A DNA stretch of 48,611 bases, from positions 1 to 48,611 of the forward strand of contig CAINXK010000045.1 in NCBI GenBank assembly GCA_903854805.1, written 5' to 3'. Shown here one piece after another: positions 17,679 to 25,497 of the stretch (position 1 is the stretch's first letter; every line of letters begins with the position of its first letter). The stretch is from an uncultured Anaerolineae bacterium. GTDB lineage: Bacteria > Chloroflexota > Anaerolineae > Anaerolineales > Villigracilaceae. The notes under the pieces were generated by a model, which was not told the DNA's origin, ran no database searches, and saw only the letters and a program-made list of their open reading frames with translations. The translations under genes were made by a program, and so were the position numbers.

Positions 17679-19817
17679 TTGAGAACTTTTTGGAGGCACA
17701 AAATCGCCAACTTACCACACAATCAACCGTTGGGTTCGCGCATTCTTTTGATAGCGGCTTTGGCCTCGGTCTTGGGCGGTTTTGGAAGCGCTTTTTTGAC
17801 AATGCAAGGATATCTTGCAGATCAAAAAAAAGAATTTGACGATGGCTTTGCTTATTCCCAAAACCAAACAGATGCTATTATGCAAAAGATGGATGCGGAA
17901 TTTGCCAGCCAAAAAATGGTCGTCGAAACCCTTGCGGATCAGTTATCGTCTGGCCAAATTCGTTATCAGGATGTTATCCCCGCAATCAAAGTGATTACTG
18001 ACCAGAAACCCAACTTATTTGGTGTGGTCGTCTGTTTTTCTCCTGGCGTGTATCCCGGAAAAAAGCTGTATGGGCCCTATTTGGCATTAAATCAAACCGG
18101 AAAACATGATCTTATCCAGGTAGAGGACATCTACGATTATTCGGATGCGGCATCACCCAAATCAGTATGGTACCAAAAAATTATCCAAGCAGGCAAAGGG
18201 CAGTGGATTCGACAATATGGTGAGGCTACACAAGATTGGGTGGTAATTTATGGAACTCCATTCTTCCGCATAGATGCTGTCACAGGCAAGAAAACCATTG
18301 CTGGCGTGGTTGCCGCGACACATTCTGTGGGCACAACGTTAAAAACATTTATGCAATCCATAGATCTGGGACAAGAAGGCTACGCTTTATTAGTCACAGA
18401 TGATGGCAAGATCGTGCATCATCCCAACCCGGCTGTGATCAATAAGACTATACAAAATATCGCAGACATGACCGGAGATGTTGTCCTTGCAGGGGCGGCA
18501 CAACGCCAATTGCAGGGAGAAAATTTCTACGTTGAACGCAAATCGATCAATCAAACGGCTTCGTGGACAACTTTCAGAGTACTACCGACCTCAAAATGGA
18601 CGGTGGTGACCGTCGTCTATCAAAATTCTCTATCCAGACCCGCCAGGATAATCTTCGTGCAATTTCTCTATCTTGGGCTGGCCCTCTTGGTGGGAATGCT
18701 GGGGTTGATGTTTTTAGTTTTTCGTCCTGATAAAAAAACGTCTTTGCGCTTATGGGCAACATCCTTGACGGGTGCCATTCTAATCACACTATGCCTGTTT
18801 TGGCTCTGGTATTTGGCCTATACCATTTCGCTCGAAAAAAGGGAGGTCATCATAAATGATGAAAATGTGGCGACTACCATCGCTGCGACAAAGAAAGACA
18901 GCCTGTCGGTCAGCGAAGCGCCAATCCAAATTCCCACCGGAATTATGATCGAAAATATTAGTATTTCCAACAACAGTGCGAAATTAACCGGTTACATTTG
19001 GCAAAAATATCCATTAAACATGGATAATGCCAGGATCATTGCGCCTCGTTTCCCCGATGCCATCGGCTCATCCGAACTCACCGAGGTCTATCGATTTACA
19101 CAGCATGGCAAGCTTGTGATTGGCTGGGTTTTTAATGCCGAACTAAGTCAACACTTCAACTTCAACCATTACCCAATCGACCAAAGTATCGTCCAACTTC
19201 TGATAGAGCCCAATGACTATACAATAAATGCGCTGATGGTACCTGACTTTCAGGAATACGAGTATATGTCACCCAGCCAAAAACCTGGCATCCAAAATAA
19301 TCTTTCGCCAGTTGGTTGGGAAATAAAGGACAGCTTTTTTTCCTATGTTCGCGCAACCTATAACACCACATTTGGCGGCTCGTCCAATATCTATATAAAT
19401 AAATATCCAGTTTTAGCATTCAATATCCAGTCCGAGCGGCTTGTGCTCTCACCGGTCATCACGTATGGAATTATCATCTGCGTCTTGTTGGTACAAATAT
19501 TTGGGCTGCTGTTATTCCCCATTGAGAAACCCACTGAATCTTTTTCCATATCATCAGCCTTATTCCTGGTGATTGCCATCACTCACAATACATTACGCGC
19601 AGGGTTGGATCTAAACGGAACAGTCTACCTTGAGTATTTATTCATCTTCATGTATCTAGTGGTTCTTCTTGTAGGGTTGATATCGCTCATGCGCACCCTT
19701 AATGTCGAGTCAAAAATGCTCTCTCAAGACGCATTGATACCAAAACTGATGTTTTGGCCGACTATATCCATGGTAGTTCTGATCATCACGCTGGTCGTTT
19801 TTTACCCTGGTGCGTAG
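17679..19817 (+). CDS. dCache-fused pentameric ligand-gated ion channel-like protein
   Basis: Order in 712 residues: TM1 (about 20-42), a dCache/PDC sensor domain (about 43-315), TM2 (324-348), TM3 (355-384), a pLGIC-type extracellular beta domain (about 385-588), then M1 (591-613), M2 (620-641), M3 (649-671) and M4 (690-709). Cache evidence is WYQKIIQAGKGQWIRQYGE, GTPFFRID, IAGVVAATHSVGTTLKTF and GYALLVTDDGKIVHHP. Channel evidence is TGYIWQKY, a Pro-loop with HYPIDQS (498-503), a VYLEY M2-M3 link, and close alignment to the next gene. Cache domains bind small metabolites outside the cell, and pLGICs pass ions through five M2 helices. The M1 Pro and the M2-M3 Pro of typical channels are absent. 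The start is uncertain: TTG at 17679, or ATC at 17703 six bases after GGAGG (17692-17696). Confidence 0.75.
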   Translation: MRTFWRHKIANLPHNQPLGSRILLIAALASVLGGFGSAFLTMQGYLADQKKEFDDGFAYSQNQTDAIMQKMDAEFASQKMVVETLADQLSSGQIRYQDVIPAIKVITDQKPNLFGVVVCFSPGVYPGKKLYGPYLALNQTGKHDLIQVEDIYDYSDAASPKSVWYQKIIQAGKGQWIRQYGEATQDWVVIYGTPFFRIDAVTGKKTIAGVVAATHSVGTTLKTFMQSIDLGQEGYALLVTDDGKIVHHPNPAVINKTIQNIADMTGDVVLAGAAQRQLQGENFYVERKSINQTASWTTFRVLPTSKWTVVTVVYQNSLSRPARIIFVQFLYLGLALLVGMLGLMFLVFRPDKKTSLRLWATSLTGAILITLCLFWLWYLAYTISLEKREVIINDENVATTIAATKKDSLSVSEAPIQIPTGIMIENISISNNSAKLTGYIWQKYPLNMDNARIIAPRFPDAIGSSELTEVYRFTQHGKLVIGWVFNAELSQHFNFNHYPIDQSIVQLLIEPNDYTINALMVPDFQEYEYMSPSQKPGIQNNLSPVGWEIKDSFFSYVRATYNTTFGGSSNIYINKYPVLAFNIQSERLVLSPVITYGIIICVLLVQIFGLLLFPIEKPTESFSISSALFLVIAITHNTLRAGLDLNGTVYLEYLFIFMYLVVLLVGLISLMRTLNVESKMLSQDALIPKLMFWPTISMVVLIITLVVFYPGA

Positions 19818-20205
19818 CTTGTCACAAATTACTGACGCCGTTGGTTTTTACAACACACTTTGTACCTGTAATTGTTGCTTTAACATCATACTTGTTTTTG
19901 TTAAAGATTTGGCCAGCGCACTCCAACCATATCAATGCGCGAGAATTCTGACTTTGGATCGTACAAGTATTGCCTCAGTTTTGCTTTTCCAATGATTACC
20001 AGATTACCCTTTTCTTTTGCTATTCTGTTCTTTCCAGATCAAAAAAATGCCTTTTCATTGTATTTCCCGCTTGATATTGTTGATACATTAAAGCCATGGA
20101 ACAAAAACCACAGCAAATCGGGCAAATTTTTCAATTCAGCAAAGTTCTATTTTTTGCACATGCAATAATATTGCTATCTTTTATGATTGTTACGTGAGGT
20201 GATTT
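19818..20205. other. Gap between the two channel-like genes
   Basis: 388 AT-rich bases with no supported gene or terminator. The second channel gene may share the first gene's transcript or have its own promoter near 20150-20190, but no clean -35/-10 pair is visible. Confidence 0.4.
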
Positions 20206-21525
20206 ATGAAATGGTCTGTTGTTTTCAGTGTATTCATTACCCTTGCGCTGGCAGGGTTAGTGGTGACTCCGGTCATTGCATACTCTGGCGACGGGACGTA
20301 TATTTCCGAAAGAGTTCGGGGAATGGTCATTTTGGGTTTTGCGTTACTGACAATTATCGCAACCACGTGGGTCTATTTCGTAAGCGGCGCGCGAAAGGAA
20401 AAGATCAGCGGCTTATGGCTGACCGCGATCGTATTTTCGGCATTATGTCTTATCGGGATTGGGACAATCTGGTACATGGTTTCGCATCGCTCACCAGATG
20501 AAGATACCCCGGCCAGCTATCACATGGTTCTCAACGATGCCGACGTGGCTTCCGTCAGAGAAGCACAGATTTCAGTTTCGCAAAGTACCAACATCGATCC
20601 GCCAATTTTTATTCCGACCGGTGTTTTCATCCAATCCATGGAATTTACCAGCGCCAACAACGTGGTCATTACTGGCTATATTTGGCAGCGCTATTCGAAT
20701 GACATTCCGGCCGATATTTCACGCGGTTTTGTCATGCCTGAAGGGGACAAGATCGATGGCACCGAGGTCTATCGTGTGAAACAGGGAAATGAAGAAGTGA
20801 TTGGCTGGTATATTCAGACTACCCTGCGCCAGACTTTTGATTATGCCCGCTACCCATTTGACCGGCAGGATATCTGGCTGCGGCTGTGGCACAAAGATTT
20901 TGCCCGCAACGTCATCCTGGTGCCTGATTTTGCAGCGTATGGTGGCAACTGGGAACTTTTCAACCGGATGGGCCTGGAGCGAGATTTTGTTCTGGAACGG
21001 CTGGCTCTCGAACGCACCTATTTCAATTATCACTTTAACAGCTACTCGACTAATTTTGGGATAAACAACTATATCGGGCAGAATAACTTTCCCGAACTTT
21101 ATTTCAATGTCGGTGTCCGGCGCGAGGTATTGGACGCATTCGTAGCTTATCTGATCCCGATGATCATCCTGATATTAATGGCCTTTGGGGTGCAATTTAT
21201 TGTCACCCAAATCGCTGAAAAGATGAGCATGTACGGGATCAGTACCATAGGCTTGATCGGATACTATGCTTCATTATTTTTCATTGGCATCCTGGCCCAC
21301 CTCGATATACGGCGCACATTAAATGCGCCGGGTGTGGTCTACCTGGAGTATTTTTACTTTGCGCTGTATACGATTCTGCTCCTACAAACCATCAACTCCA
21401 TAGTTTTCACTGTCTCGGACAAATTCCATTTCGTAGAATATGAAGATAACCTATATCCTAAGGTAATTTTCTTTCCGGTGACCCTGGGTATTATGTTTGT
21501 CGTGACAGCGATCATCTTTTTCTAA
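20206..21525 (+). CDS. Pentameric ligand-gated ion channel-like protein (Pro-loop receptor)
   Basis: The 439-residue protein has three N-terminal helices (about 4-25, 40-59, 69-91). A beta-sandwich extracellular domain follows (about 110-305), then M1 (310-333), M2 (341-364), M3 (377-401) and M4 (418-438). Marks of bacterial pLGICs such as GLIC are the Pro-loop RYPFDRQ (215-221), Arg residues just before M1 (VGVRREVLDAF), M1 Pro in AYLIPMII, the M2-M3 link LNAPGVVYLEY (like GLIC's NLPKTPYMTY), and an M4 beginning YPKVIFFPV. It should assemble as a pentameric ion channel. The ATG has GAGG at 20196-20199. It is paralogous to the preceding Cache-bearing protein over the whole channel part (IPTGV, TGYIWQRY, TEVYR, VIGW). 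Ligand and ion selectivity unknown. Confidence 0.8.
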   Translation: MKWSVVFSVFITLALAGLVVTPVIAYSGDGTYISERVRGMVILGFALLTIIATTWVYFVSGARKEKISGLWLTAIVFSALCLIGIGTIWYMVSHRSPDEDTPASYHMVLNDADVASVREAQISVSQSTNIDPPIFIPTGVFIQSMEFTSANNVVITGYIWQRYSNDIPADISRGFVMPEGDKIDGTEVYRVKQGNEEVIGWYIQTTLRQTFDYARYPFDRQDIWLRLWHKDFARNVILVPDFAAYGGNWELFNRMGLERDFVLERLALERTYFNYHFNSYSTNFGINNYIGQNNFPELYFNVGVRREVLDAFVAYLIPMIILILMAFGVQFIVTQIAEKMSMYGISTIGLIGYYASLFFIGILAHLDIRRTLNAPGVVYLEYFYFALYTILLLQTINSIVFTVSDKFHFVEYEDNLYPKVIFFPVTLGIMFVVTAIIFF

Positions 21526-22307: not shown

Positions 22308-23183
22308 ATGCAATTAAAAGGCATATACGCCCCGATCGTGACACCCTTCGACTCTGACGAAAACATCAATTACGAGGTACTCAAACAGTTGATCGACTAT
22401 GTTCTGGCTAACGGCGTGACCGGGCTGGTGCCCGGCGGCACCACCGGCGAGGTGTATGCTTTCAGCGAAGCCGAACGGTTAGAAATCTTCAGGTTCGTTA
22501 AAGAATACGCCGGAACACGCGCCACACTGATCGCCGGAACCAACTCAGGAGCCACGCGTGATGTGATCCGCTACTCAGAAATTGCCGCCAAAATGGGCTA
22601 CGATGGATTGATGCTGGCCGTGCCGCCTTATTCACGCCCAAACCAGCGCGAACTGCTGGCGCACTACCGCGCTGTAGCCCAGGCAGTTGAAATTCCGATC
22701 GTACTTTACAACTTCCCTTGGCGCGCCGGAACCGAAGTGGGCTTCGATGTTCTGGATGGACTGCAAGAATACAAGCATGTGATTGGTATAAAAGAAGCCA
22801 GCGGCGAAATGGCGCGCGTGTACGAGATGCGCCTGCGCTATGGGGACCGATACCAGATCATTTGTGGTTCTGATGACCAGGCACTGGATTACTTTCTATG
22901 GGGCACGCAGAGCTGGATCGGCGGTGCGGCTTCCTGCGCGCCACGCCAACACGCCGCTGTGCTCGCGGCCGCCCAGACGGGTGATTTCAACCAGGCTCGT
23001 GCACTGATGGAAAAATTGCTGCCCATGCTGCGCAATATGGAAAGTGGCGGCTACACTCAAAAGGTCAAAGTTGGCTGCGAATTGCTCGGCATCCCGGTTG
23101 GCAATCCGCGCCGTCCACTACTGCCAATTTTGGATGAAGACCGGCGCGAATTCGAGCGTGTTTTCGCACTGGCGCAGGCCTGA
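22308..23183 (+). CDS. DHDPS/NAL-family lyase, probably Delta1-pyrroline-4-hydroxy-2-carboxylate deaminase
   Basis: The 291-residue TIM-barrel protein has the family active site: GGTTGE (T45/T46), Tyr134 in VLYNFPWRAG and Schiff-base Lys162 in IGIKEASGE. By itself it could be dihydrodipicolinate synthase, N-acetylneuraminate lyase or a related aldolase. The next two genes are a hydroxyproline-epimerase-type racemase and a D-amino-acid dehydrogenase. The best guess is therefore the deaminase that turns pyrroline-4-hydroxy-2-carboxylate into 2-oxoglutarate semialdehyde. It has a good AGGAG ribosome site and lies 17 bases before the epimerase gene. Family certain, specific function inferred from context. 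Confidence 0.8.
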   Translation: MQLKGIYAPIVTPFDSDENINYEVLKQLIDYVLANGVTGLVPGGTTGEVYAFSEAERLEIFRFVKEYAGTRATLIAGTNSGATRDVIRYSEIAAKMGYDGLMLAVPPYSRPNQRELLAHYRAVAQAVEIPIVLYNFPWRAGTEVGFDVLDGLQEYKHVIGIKEASGEMARVYEMRLRYGDRYQIICGSDDQALDYFLWGTQSWIGGAASCAPRQHAAVLAAAQTGDFNQARALMEKLLPMLRNMESGGYTQKVKVGCELLGIPVGNPRRPLLPILDEDRREFERVFALAQA

Positions 23184-23200
23184 TCCACAAAGGAGCGATA

Positions 23201-24151
23201 ATGAAACGTATCGCGTTTCTTGATTCTCACACCGGAGGCGAACCCACCCGCCTGATTGAAACAGGCGCACCTGATCTCGGAGGCGGAACAGTTGCCGAAA
23301 AGTTGACCCGCCTGAAAACAGACCACGATAATTTTCGCGGGCAGATGCTTAATGAACCGCGCGGCTCGGACGTACTCGTCGGCGCCCTGATGGTGGCGCC
23401 ATCCGACCCCACCTGCCAGCTGGGAGTAATCTATTTCAACAACGTGGGCTACCTGGGAATGTGTGGGCACGGAACGATTGGACTGATGGCATCGCTCTCT
23501 TACCTGGGACGCATCAGCCCAGGCACCTATCGCATCGAAACGCCGGTTGGCGTGGTCGCAGCAACCCTGCACCCCACCGCTGCCGGAAGTTCGTATCCAA
23601 ACCGGGTTTCTGTTCGCAATATTCCGGCTTATCGGCACCTGAAACAAGTAATCGTCGAGATCGATGGACGCAGTATCCACGGTGATGTTGCCTGGGGGGG
23701 CAACTGGTTCTTTCTGGTGCATGACCATGGATTGGACGTATCATTCAAAAATCTGGAAGAATTAACCGACTTTGCCTGGCGAGTACGCGCCGCTCTCACC
23801 CTGCTGGCTATCAAAGGCGCCGGTGGCCATGAAATTGACCATATCGAACTCTTTGCCAGCAGCCCGGAAGCCGACAGCCGCAGTTTCGTGTTATGCCCAG
23901 GCAAGGCTTATGACCGCTCACCATGCGGTACCGGCACCAGCGCAAAACTGGCCTGCCTTTACGAAGATGGCAAACTGGCTGAAGGTCAGGTTTGGAAACA
24001 GCAGAGCGTGGTGGGCAGTATTTTCGATGGACAGGTTGAGATTCAGAACGGGCAGATCATTCCAACCATCACCGGAGAAGCCTGGGTCATGGCCGAGGGA
24101 CAACTGCTGGTGGATGAGCGCGATCCGTTTGGGGATGGCTTCCAAGCTTGA
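23201..24151 (+). CDS. Proline racemase family, likely 4-hydroxyproline 2-epimerase
   Basis: The 316-residue protein begins MKRIAFLDSHTGGEPTRLIE, the signature start of hydroxyproline-type racemases. Both catalytic cysteines are present: C88 in GMCGHGTIG and C242 in SPCGTGTSAKL. Dehydratases of this family have Thr at the second site, so a racemase/epimerase is favoured. It would convert trans-4-hydroxy-L-proline to cis-4-hydroxy-D-proline by two-base proton transfer. It sits between the deaminase-like and dehydrogenase genes, with a GGAG ribosome site. Proline racemase activity is the alternative, but the context fits hydroxyproline better. Confidence 0.85.
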   Translation: MKRIAFLDSHTGGEPTRLIETGAPDLGGGTVAEKLTRLKTDHDNFRGQMLNEPRGSDVLVGALMVAPSDPTCQLGVIYFNNVGYLGMCGHGTIGLMASLSYLGRISPGTYRIETPVGVVAATLHPTAAGSSYPNRVSVRNIPAYRHLKQVIVEIDGRSIHGDVAWGGNWFFLVHDHGLDVSFKNLEELTDFAWRVRAALTLLAIKGAGGHEIDHIELFASSPEADSRSFVLCPGKAYDRSPCGTGTSAKLACLYEDGKLAEGQVWKQQSVVGSIFDGQVEIQNGQIIPTITGEAWVMAEGQLLVDERDPFGDGFQA

Positions 24152-24243
24152 TTTTTTGACTCTGCCCTGGGTAAGAAGCTGCTAATTCTTCGCCTGAAAA
24201 TTGGAAAATCCTGTATTTCGATGGTGTCTGGAAGGTGGCGTGT

Positions 24244-25497
24244 ATGACAACAAAAACTGATGTATTGATTATTGGAGGCGGCTCAATTGGCTTGAATTGC
24301 GCTTATTATTTGCAAAAAAACGGGCGCAGCGTAACCATTCTCGATCAAAAACAAATCGCAGCGGGCAGTTCAGCAGGGAATGCTGGTCATATTGTACCCA
24401 GCCATATTATTCCACTGGCTGCGCCAGGAATGATTGGTATGGCGCTCAAGTGGATGCTAAATCCGGACAGCAGCCCTTTCAGTATGAAGATCAGCCTGGA
24501 TCCAGCCTACATTGCATGGCTTTTCCAATTTTCGATGGCCTGCAGTGCCGCCAACGTGGAACGCGCCATTCCCCCTTTAAAATCTCTAGGCTTGTTGAGC
24601 GCTCAAAATTTTACCGACATGGTGACGGAAGAAAACTTTGATTGTCACTACAGCCAGACCGGCCTGCTGTTCCTCTATAAAAGCGAGGCGGCCTTCGCGA
24701 GCGGCAAACATGAAGCCGATCTACTGCACCAAAACGGACTACCTGCCGAAGTTCTCGATCGGGCGACAGTCCATGCAAGAGAACCATCCGCACTCGCGAG
24801 TGTGATCGGCGGTGTACACTTTACCGGAGACGCTTCGCTAAACCCGGCCAGTTTTCTGCTGCAGCTGGCAAAACGCGTGCGCGAGCAAGGCGCAGTTATT
24901 TATGAAAACACGCCGGTCAGCGCCATCGAAAGCGCCAATGGCAAAATTACACTGGTCAGAACAAATACAGAAGACTTCGAACCACAACTGGTGGTACTCG
25001 CGGCTGGGGCCTGGTCACCTCAGGTGGTGCGAGGCTTGGGACTGAATATTCCGATCCAACCGGCGCGTGGTTACAGTATGAGTATGCCAGCCACAAAAAA
25101 CATGCCCAAGCAGGCCTTGCTGTTGGGTGAAAAACGCGTGGCCGTCACTCCCATGGGAGATATATTGCGCTTCACCGGCCGGCTGGAACTGAGCACGCTG
25201 GATACAACTGTCAGCCAAAAACAAATCGCTGGCATCGAAAGTGCCGTGCGCGAATACATCCAAATGGATGAGAAACTGGAGATCAACGAAACCTGGGCCG
25301 GGCTGCGCCCGACAACGCCGGATGGACTGCCTATCATTGGGTTTTCGCCAAAGCATGCCAACCTGTTGTTGGCCAGTGGACATGCCATGCTGGGCCTTTC
25401 ACTCGGGCCAGGTACCGGGCAGGTGGTGGCAGAATTGGCCAGGGGTGCAAAACCAGCCTTTGACCTGGGTCCGCTGCAGGCAAAACGCTTCAATTAA
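24244..25497 (+). CDS. FAD-dependent D-amino acid dehydrogenase (D-hydroxyproline dehydrogenase-like)
   Basis: The 417-residue DAO-family protein has an N-terminal Rossmann dinucleotide motif (VLIIGGGSIGLNCAYYL). An FAD-contact segment SSAGNAGHIVPSHI, typical of DadA-like dehydrogenases, follows. The C-terminal WAGLRPTTPDGLPIIGFSP and SGHAMLGLSLGPGTGQVVAEL complete the FAD site. It would oxidise cis-4-hydroxy-D-proline to pyrroline-4-hydroxy-2-carboxylate, passing electrons to a membrane carrier rather than oxygen. The ATG at 24244 follows AAGGTGG; the GTG at 24235 overlaps that site and is unlikely. It closes the three-gene cluster and shares a bidirectional terminator with the multicopper oxidase. 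Confidence 0.85.
   Translation: MTTKTDVLIIGGGSIGLNCAYYLQKNGRSVTILDQKQIAAGSSAGNAGHIVPSHIIPLAAPGMIGMALKWMLNPDSSPFSMKISLDPAYIAWLFQFSMACSAANVERAIPPLKSLGLLSAQNFTDMVTEENFDCHYSQTGLLFLYKSEAAFASGKHEADLLHQNGLPAEVLDRATVHAREPSALASVIGGVHFTGDASLNPASFLLQLAKRVREQGAVIYENTPVSAIESANGKITLVRTNTEDFEPQLVVLAAGAWSPQVVRGLGLNIPIQPARGYSMSMPATKNMPKQALLLGEKRVAVTPMGDILRFTGRLELSTLDTTVSQKQIAGIESAVREYIQMDEKLEINETWAGLRPTTPDGLPIIGFSPKHANLLLASGHAMLGLSLGPGTGQVVAELARGAKPAFDLGPLQAKRFN

What the first reader, a model, noticed from the sequence alone, without database searches (positions are those of the whole stretch)
17679..21525. Tandem pentameric ligand-gated channel genes, one fused to a dCache sensor
Two adjacent paralogs carry the pLGIC extracellular domain (YPFDRQ and YPIDQS Pro-loop) and four-helix pore region, with clear likeness to GLIC at the Pro-loop, the pre-M1 Arg, the M1 Pro, the M2-M3 Pro-x-x-x-Y and M4. 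The first adds an extracytoplasmic dCache domain, normally found on chemoreceptors and kinases. A Cache domain linked to an ion channel would turn a metabolite signal directly into ion flow. A few bacterial pLGICs with extra N-terminal domains are known; a Cache-pLGIC and plain pLGIC pair in one locus is much less described.
Basis: partly seen in the sequence, partly recalled or inferred. Interest (0 to 1): 0.92.

Follow-up and report, generated by a model that had tools for sequence, protein, structure and literature searches.

The report
Paired bacterial neurotransmitter-receptor-like channel genes
Two neighbouring bacterial genes encode distant relatives of our nerve-signal receptor channels, one carrying an extra outside sensor and one without it; fusions of this sensor to such channels were reported in 2004, but the built-in membrane anchor and the pairing of a sensor-bearing with a bare subunit look little explored and testable.

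Summary

Cache-pLGIC fusion is not new: Tasneem et al. 2004 reported it in Methanosarcina, Cytophaga and Microbulbifer. It is the commoner form of a large family (832 database proteins; 190 genome stretches). Less described: sensor and channel are separated by a membrane hairpin, so B has seven predicted TM helices, not four; bare subunits recur. A and B belong to distant clades, so they are not a local duplication. The A+B pair recurs in one other genome. In two related Streptomyces, separately, a bare subunit follows a PBP-I-fused pLGIC.

Best reading: A is a sensor subunit and B a core subunit of a ligand-gated channel, possibly hetero-oligomeric. Fold and homology are shown; pentamer, conduction, ligand and A-B assembly are inferred. 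B-type genes also occur without A in four other genomes, which weakens obligate pairing.

The parts
17692..17696 (+). GGAGG, probable ribosome-binding site of A, 6 nt before an ATC at 17703 that aligns with Met1 of orthologue P0122
   Evidence: sequence, orthologue N-termini compared by eye; inference
17679..19817 (+). gene A: Cache-pLGIC, 712 aa from TTG 17679, or 704 aa from ATC 17703
17811..18638 (+). A dCache sensor (residues 45-320), extracytoplasmic
18642..18824 (+). A TM2-TM3 membrane hairpin (residues 322-348, 355-382) between sensor and channel, with a basic loop
   Evidence: helices in the model, homologous to B TM2-TM3, hydropathy across the family
18912..19442 (+). A pLGIC-type beta-sandwich (residues 412-588), Pro-loop YPIDQS at 19170-19187, pre-M1 Arg587
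19446..19802 (+). A M1-M4; acidic residue E620 at the predicted cytoplasmic end of M2 (6 of 6 A-clade rows acidic)
20206..21525 (+). gene B: Cache-less seven-TM pLGIC, 439 aa
20212..20484 (+). B three N-terminal TM helices (residues 3-26, 35-59, 67-93); no dCache between the first two
   Evidence: model; its lowest confidence is in residues 1-30
20593..21123 (+). B pLGIC-type beta-sandwich (residues 130-306), Pro-loop YPFDRQ at 20851-20868, pre-M1 Arg306
21127..21519 (+). B M1-M4 (M2 residues 347-372 with His365 and Arg369)

Best explanation
[quoted passage not shown] In each subunit an extracytoplasmic beta-sandwich sits on a four-helix pore domain (shown: fold and homology). In the commoner form of this branch a dCache sensor is anchored by TM1 and TM2 and joined through a TM2-TM3 hairpin and a helix to the beta-sandwich. 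A ligand bound by the dCache of A would shift TM2-TM3 and that helix, and so tilt the beta-sandwich and open the pore (inferred). B lacks the sensor but keeps the TM helices and the conserved core, so it most likely contributes pore and interface, either as homo-oligomer or together with A (inferred; the weakest step). A carries an acidic residue at the predicted inner end of M2, the position that makes some animal pores cation-selective (numbering recalled and uncertain).
Against: The TMD alone gives no significant profile match to classical pLGICs (2.1%). Pfam Neur_chan models do not hit A or B. M2 has the lowest hydrophobic moment of the four helices (0.35 against 0.36-0.63), not what a classical amphipathic pore helix would show. 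B M2 has Gly at the predicted -1' and Phe at 9', and the conserved Arg and His are not typical pore residues. Four other genomes with B-clade genes show only one family gene each at E up to 1e-10. A has lost several residues conserved elsewhere in the family, so it may not form a working pore. Only monomers were modelled. The A-B gap is 388 bp here though 47 bp in L001.
Confidence: 0.6

Rival explanations
1. A receptor on a pLGIC scaffold that no longer conducts: A and B sense and pass a conformational signal to another membrane or cytoplasmic partner.
For: TMD alone not recognised by profile; M2 lacks the usual polar rings in B and has the lowest hydrophobic moment of the four helices; 14 more residues between pre-M1 Arg and the M2-M3 turn in B than in the GLIC-like L085 (counted on the sequences); the A clade has lost conserved core residues.
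Against: Four-helix bundle superposes on open GLIC; M2 is still the least hydrophobic helix; no cytoplasmic signalling domain by Pfam in A, B or 13 relatives scanned; no neighbour shared by the window and L001.
Confidence: 0.25
2. A and B form separate homo-oligomeric channels with unrelated triggers; adjacency is only a shared transfer unit.
For: B-clade genes stand alone in G375-G378; A and B lie in distant clades; 388 bp gap here; family genes are sparse, 3 of 301 genomes of the order and 15 of 396 of the class, as if mobile.
Against: The same A+B order in L001 with a 47 bp gap; a sensor-bearing plus bare pair also in Streptomyces, in another clade; 6 of 79 loci hold two family genes.
Confidence: 0.45
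3. Not pLGICs at all: a convergent beta-sandwich plus four helices.
For: Pfam silence; no profile signal from the TMD alone.
Confidence: 0.02

Closest known systems
MCP-N/Cache-fused ART-LGICs of Methanosarcina, Cytophaga, Microbulbifer (Tasneem et al. 2004, PMC549065; passages and sections 6, 8, 17 seen)
   Same: Cache domain N-terminal to the pLGIC core; members of this branch come from Methanosarcina (P0132, P0168) and Cytophaga (P0187)
   Different: The sections seen describe extra domains between signal peptide and LBD and do not mention a TM hairpin or a bare partner with three N-terminal TMs. Their exact proteins could not be compared.
GLIC / ELIC (classical prokaryotic pLGICs)
   Different: About 14% identity; extra N-terminal TMs and sensor; longer M1-M2 stretch; different M2
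DeCLIC (PMC9897478 passages; PMC12664993 search listing only)
   Same: Prokaryotic pLGIC with accessory extracellular domains
   Different: As recalled, its NTD is soluble and stacked on the ECD, not anchored by its own TM helices
PBP-I-fused bacterial pLGICs (a Tasneem 2004 theme)
   Same: Small-molecule sensor fused to a pLGIC; in L070 and L075 such a gene precedes a bare member of this branch
   Different: Different sensor fold; core closer to classical pLGICs
[not shown]
   Same: Sensor fold, TM-anchored on both sides
   Different: Output is a channel-type domain; AA-motif Arg missing

Membership tests
pLGIC (Cys-loop/Pro-loop) superfamily | ECD beta-sandwich plus four-helix TMD in one chain | tested here: met
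pLGIC (Cys-loop/Pro-loop) superfamily | sequence homology above chance | tested here: met
   97.4% against at most 1.5% in controls; 103/122 against 0/122 reversed; carried by the ECD (96%), not by the TMD alone (2.1%)
pLGIC (Cys-loop/Pro-loop) superfamily | Pro-loop and pre-M1 Arg | tested here: met
   both in A and B
   met in B; A keeps only the Tyr; outside the B clade the M2-M3 Pro is not among the four commonest residues
pLGIC (Cys-loop/Pro-loop) superfamily | hit to Pfam PF02931/PF02932 | tested here: not met
   no hit at E up to 1 for A and B; weak test, since PF02931 also finds nothing in G011, whose PBP-fused pLGIC hits PF02932 only
pLGIC (Cys-loop/Pro-loop) superfamily | pentamer with a ligand-gated ion pore | not testable with these tools
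   only monomers modelled; no currents
dCache | double PDC fold between two TMs | tested here: met
dCache_1AA (amino-acid sensors) | Arg equivalent to PctA R126 | tested here: not met
   gap or Ser162 in A, column variable in the branch (motif from passages)
dCache_1AA and dCache_1AM | Asp equivalent to PctA D173 | tested here: not met
   Thr214 in A by the PctA alignment (offset set by W128/Y129), column variable
Cache-fused ART-LGICs of Tasneem 2004 | order sensor-LBD-4TM and kinship with Methanosarcina/Cytophaga members | tested here: met
Cache-fused ART-LGICs of Tasneem 2004 | same orthologous group as the 2004 proteins themselves | not testable with these tools
   their sequences are not in the text seen; a Cache HMM hits 0 of 30 loci of PF02931-type pLGICs (loci reach about 1.5 kb to either side), which makes identity likely

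The most novel reading that the evidence does not exclude
Prokaryotes have two-component ligand-gated channels: a sensor-bearing pLGIC subunit (membrane-anchored Cache in Chloroflexota, PBP-I in Streptomyces) assembles with a bare seven-TM pLGIC subunit, and in the Cache forms the sensor signal reaches the pore through a transmembrane hairpin rather than from a domain stacked on the ECD as in DeCLIC.
Probability: 0.3. Interest if true: 0.8.

Novelty: new variant of a known kind. Interest (0 to 1): 0.55.

Why it matters
How accessory domains gate pLGICs is an open question, and a 2022 paper calls DeCLIC the only member with an extra N-terminal domain of solved structure (PMC9897478, passage). 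This branch is large and spans Bacteria and Archaea; the 16 members scanned with Pfam hit no Neur_chan model. It has natural sensor-plus and sensor-minus versions of the same subunit, sometimes side by side. That makes sensor-to-pore coupling, and whether prokaryotic pLGICs form heteromers, directly testable.

Tried and rejected
Local duplication of A and B: rejected, since A lies in sets of 7 and 10 rows (SH-aLRT 100) and B in sets of 13 and 14 rows (99), far apart (a quick tree without bootstrap, long branches flagged by the program).

Amino-acid or amine sensing by the A dCache: the motif Arg and Asp are absent, so the downstream hydroxyproline-type genes give no ligand.

Functional inference from neighbours: no ORF of 110 aa or more within 5 kb is shared between the window and L001 at E<1e-8. 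Across the branch, 12 of 79 loci have a stand-alone PBP-I-like protein beside the Cache form (8 same strand, 4 opposite; 4 of the 12 checked by Pfam, all Peripla_BP_6). None of the window's neighbours joined that cluster.

Promoters and terminators: 7 and 5 found, 10.7 and 5.5 expected from shuffles. tRNAs: none in the window. Co-occurrence of A and B at scale: too few positive genomes. G1520: contigs end upstream of the genes, so pairing could not be judged. The VIA lists show only chains that Foldseek ranked first; that is no evidence against other folds. P0128/P0129: an extra N-terminal membrane part looked MscS-like by eye; Pfam found nothing there.

Rows dropped: A1 holds 110 and A2 90 of the 129 proteins, besides the window's own; the others were left out by hand, not by a rule (near-duplicates and fragments; for A2 also Cache-less ones). 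One search listed 120 of 832 hits. The tree used loci genes with core score of at least 250, 27 hand-picked proteins and 8 of the 20 pLGICs as outgroup; its P rows were labelled Cache by a length of 600 aa or more, the locus rows by HMM. Some Cache-less rows are truncated (L054, L062, L063). P0121, a near-copy of A, was left out of the column counts. L098 (205 aa) was left out of the pLGIC HMM, which rests on 20 of 21.
Full report
WHAT IS THERE. Two + strand genes lie at 17679-19817 (A) and 20206-21525 (B). No tRNA is in the window and no whole genome is held for it. A very close relative (P0121, 100% over the searched core) is named by its source as a Chloroflexi MAG protein. A begins with a TTG in the mechanical ORF list, but orthologue P0122 (704 aa) begins at the residue that the window encodes as ATC at 17703, preceded by GGAGG at 17692-17696; A is therefore probably 704 aa with an unusual start, or the ATC is a local change (N-termini compared by eye).

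DOMAINS BY SEQUENCE. Pfam finds the Cache in A (two models over their cut-offs, dCache_1 below its own) and nothing over a cut-off in B; Neur_chan_LBD and Neur_chan_memb do not appear for either at E up to 1. NCBIfam has nothing useful. B matches A over 400 residues that include A's two helices after the Cache (E 4e-43), so B is A without the dCache. Single-sequence searches of the PDB find chemoreceptor and kinase dCaches for A and nothing credible for B. The family profile reaches nAChR alpha7 at the pre-M1/M1 stretch with E about 2, a hint only.

HOMOLOGY. Reversed and nine column-shuffled versions give at most 1.5%; the ECD alone gives 96%; the TMD alone only 2.1%. An HMM of the 20 finds 105 of 122 family proteins at E<1e-3, 103 of 122 with Z set to 1000, 0 of 122 reversed, and 1 of 554 neighbouring ORFs, which proved to be a PBP-fused pLGIC. 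B scores 1.3e-7 and A 5.8e-7 for a search of 122 sequences.

HOW COMMON. The protein search with B returned 832 proteins at E up to 1e-3; of the 120 listed, 80 carry a Cache annotation. The genome scan found 190 encoding stretches and kept 79 loci; these hold 85 family genes, 55 with Cache, in 13 named phyla including methanogens, and 6 loci hold two genes. By simple hydropathy 71 of 76 Cache rows of the tree show three or more hydrophobic segments before the core, and 26 of 45 Cache-less rows have a long N-part with two or more; 18 of the other 19 have none or one. Within Chloroflexota it is sparse: 3 of 301 genomes of the order of G374 (query A core) and 15 of 396 of its class (query B core), both at E up to 1e-10.

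TREE. With 121 family rows and 8 outgroup rows the family separates from classical pLGICs. A falls in a Cache clade (7 rows, 100; 10 rows, 100) and B in a Cache-less clade (13 rows, 99; 14 rows, 99), far apart. Cache presence needs 7 changes on the tree, 5 forced by starred branches; some of these are truncated genes (for example L054, L063). It is a quick tree with long branches, so fine placement is unsure. The outgroup root puts Cache forms deepest, so losing the Cache is the simpler reading, but only that.

PRIOR ART. Tasneem et al. 2004 (PMC549065; abstract and other passages, sections 8, 6, 17; not the whole text) described MCP-N plus Cache fusions to ART-LGICs in Methanosarcina, Cytophaga and Microbulbifer, PBP-I fusions, and operons with PBP-II or Cache proteins, and suggested chemotaxis receptors. 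Members of the present branch come from Methanosarcina and Cytophaga. In 119 genomes of the class of G003, the genome behind a locus titled Methanosarcinaceae (L014), 9 have listed matches reaching the channel core of profile A1, while PF02931 passes its cut-off in 3 others (most A1 matches there, in 88 genomes, cover the Cache only, and the list was cut). A Cache HMM hits 0 of 30 loci of PF02931-type pLGICs (about 1.5 kb of flank). So the 2004 Cache-LGICs are very probably this branch, though their sequences could not be compared. Jaiteh et al. 2016 (PMC4795631, passages) has no occurrence of the word Cache in its main text. Searches for ligand-gated channels with Cache or dCache returned no other paper on this fusion by title and abstract; the library holds open-licence papers only.

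THE PAIR. A+B occurs in the window and in L001, an uncultured Anaerolineae bacterium, there with a 47 bp gap against 388 bp here. P0004 and P0124 share a longest-contig length of 5826, which suggests a third case (circumstantial). Four other genomes with B-clade genes show a single family gene. Cyanobacterial loci L020 and L036 hold orthologous pairs of Cache forms. In both Streptomyces loci of the scan (L070, L075; close relatives, so probably one event) a bare three-TM member follows a gene with Peripla_BP_6 and a pLGIC core; two further genes in G1520 could not be judged. This separate sensor-plus-bare pairing is the best support for hetero-assembly; it is still only gene order.

PORE AND POCKET. 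In 101 other family rows the Pro-loop Pro is 101/101, Asp 99, pre-M1 Arg 98, M1 Pro 77, M2 Arg369 100 and His/Gln365 100. If Arg369 is 19' (recalled from glycine receptors), A has an acid at -1' (E or D in 6 of 6 A-clade rows; 26 of 121 rows overall), and B has Gly there. A lost R208, W224, E297, Y299, N415 and the M1 Pro relative to the family, while B keeps them. This suggests that A is specialised. M2 is the least hydrophobic and most charged helix, but has the lowest hydrophobic moment of the four, so the pore assignment rests on the fold.

TOPOLOGY SUPPORT. Three relatives (two in G837, one in G892) carry a C-terminal SBP_bac_5 domain after M4 (E about 1e-55), a domain that works outside the cell, so the C-terminus is outside, as in pLGICs.

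MECHANISM. Shown: fold, homology, domain order, pairing in two genomes. Inferred: pentamer; dCache ligand outside, then TM2-TM3 hairpin, helix, beta-sandwich, M2; A as sensor and B as core subunit. The ligand is unknown; amino-acid and amine motifs are not met.

VERDICT. A sound observation whose claimed rarity is overstated: a member of a known kind with a variant layout and an unexplored pairing.

Noticed in passing
L147 2023-5964(-), L149 1490-5680(-), L148 3880-8076(+): Cache-pLGIC proteins of 1314-1399 aa with a C-terminal SBP_bac_5 (oligopeptide-binding type) domain after M4, in two genomes.
   Followed up: partly
L070 4907-7747 and 7773-9104; L075 4643-7756 and 7617-9113 (open frames; true starts not set): Streptomyces: PBP-I-fused pLGIC directly upstream of a bare three-TM member of this branch.
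   Followed up: partly
12 of 79 loci, e.g. L007 9135-10313, L025 5839-6993: Stand-alone PBP-I-like protein next to the Cache-pLGIC gene, 8 same strand with gaps of 41 bp or less, 4 opposite strand at 95-180 bp (4 of 12 checked by Pfam).
   Followed up: partly
window 17703: Probable ATC start codon of gene A with a well-placed GGAGG.
   Followed up: partly
window 22308-25497: DapA-like, proline-racemase/hydroxyproline-epimerase-like and FAD-oxidoreductase genes, which look like hydroxyproline catabolism (named by eye from the translations; not searched).
   Followed up: no
L001 1-2057: Four bacteriohemerythrin-like genes in a row upstream of the A+B pair (named by eye); not shared with the window.
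   Followed up: no
P0128, P0129: Cache-pLGICs with a further N-terminal membrane part, MscS-like by eye, no Pfam hit there.
   Followed up: partly
L064 4701-6392; L078 downstream of the family gene: Bare three-TM form beside a Na/H exchanger plus TrkA_N protein (Pfam checked for L064 only; L078 by eye).
   Followed up: no
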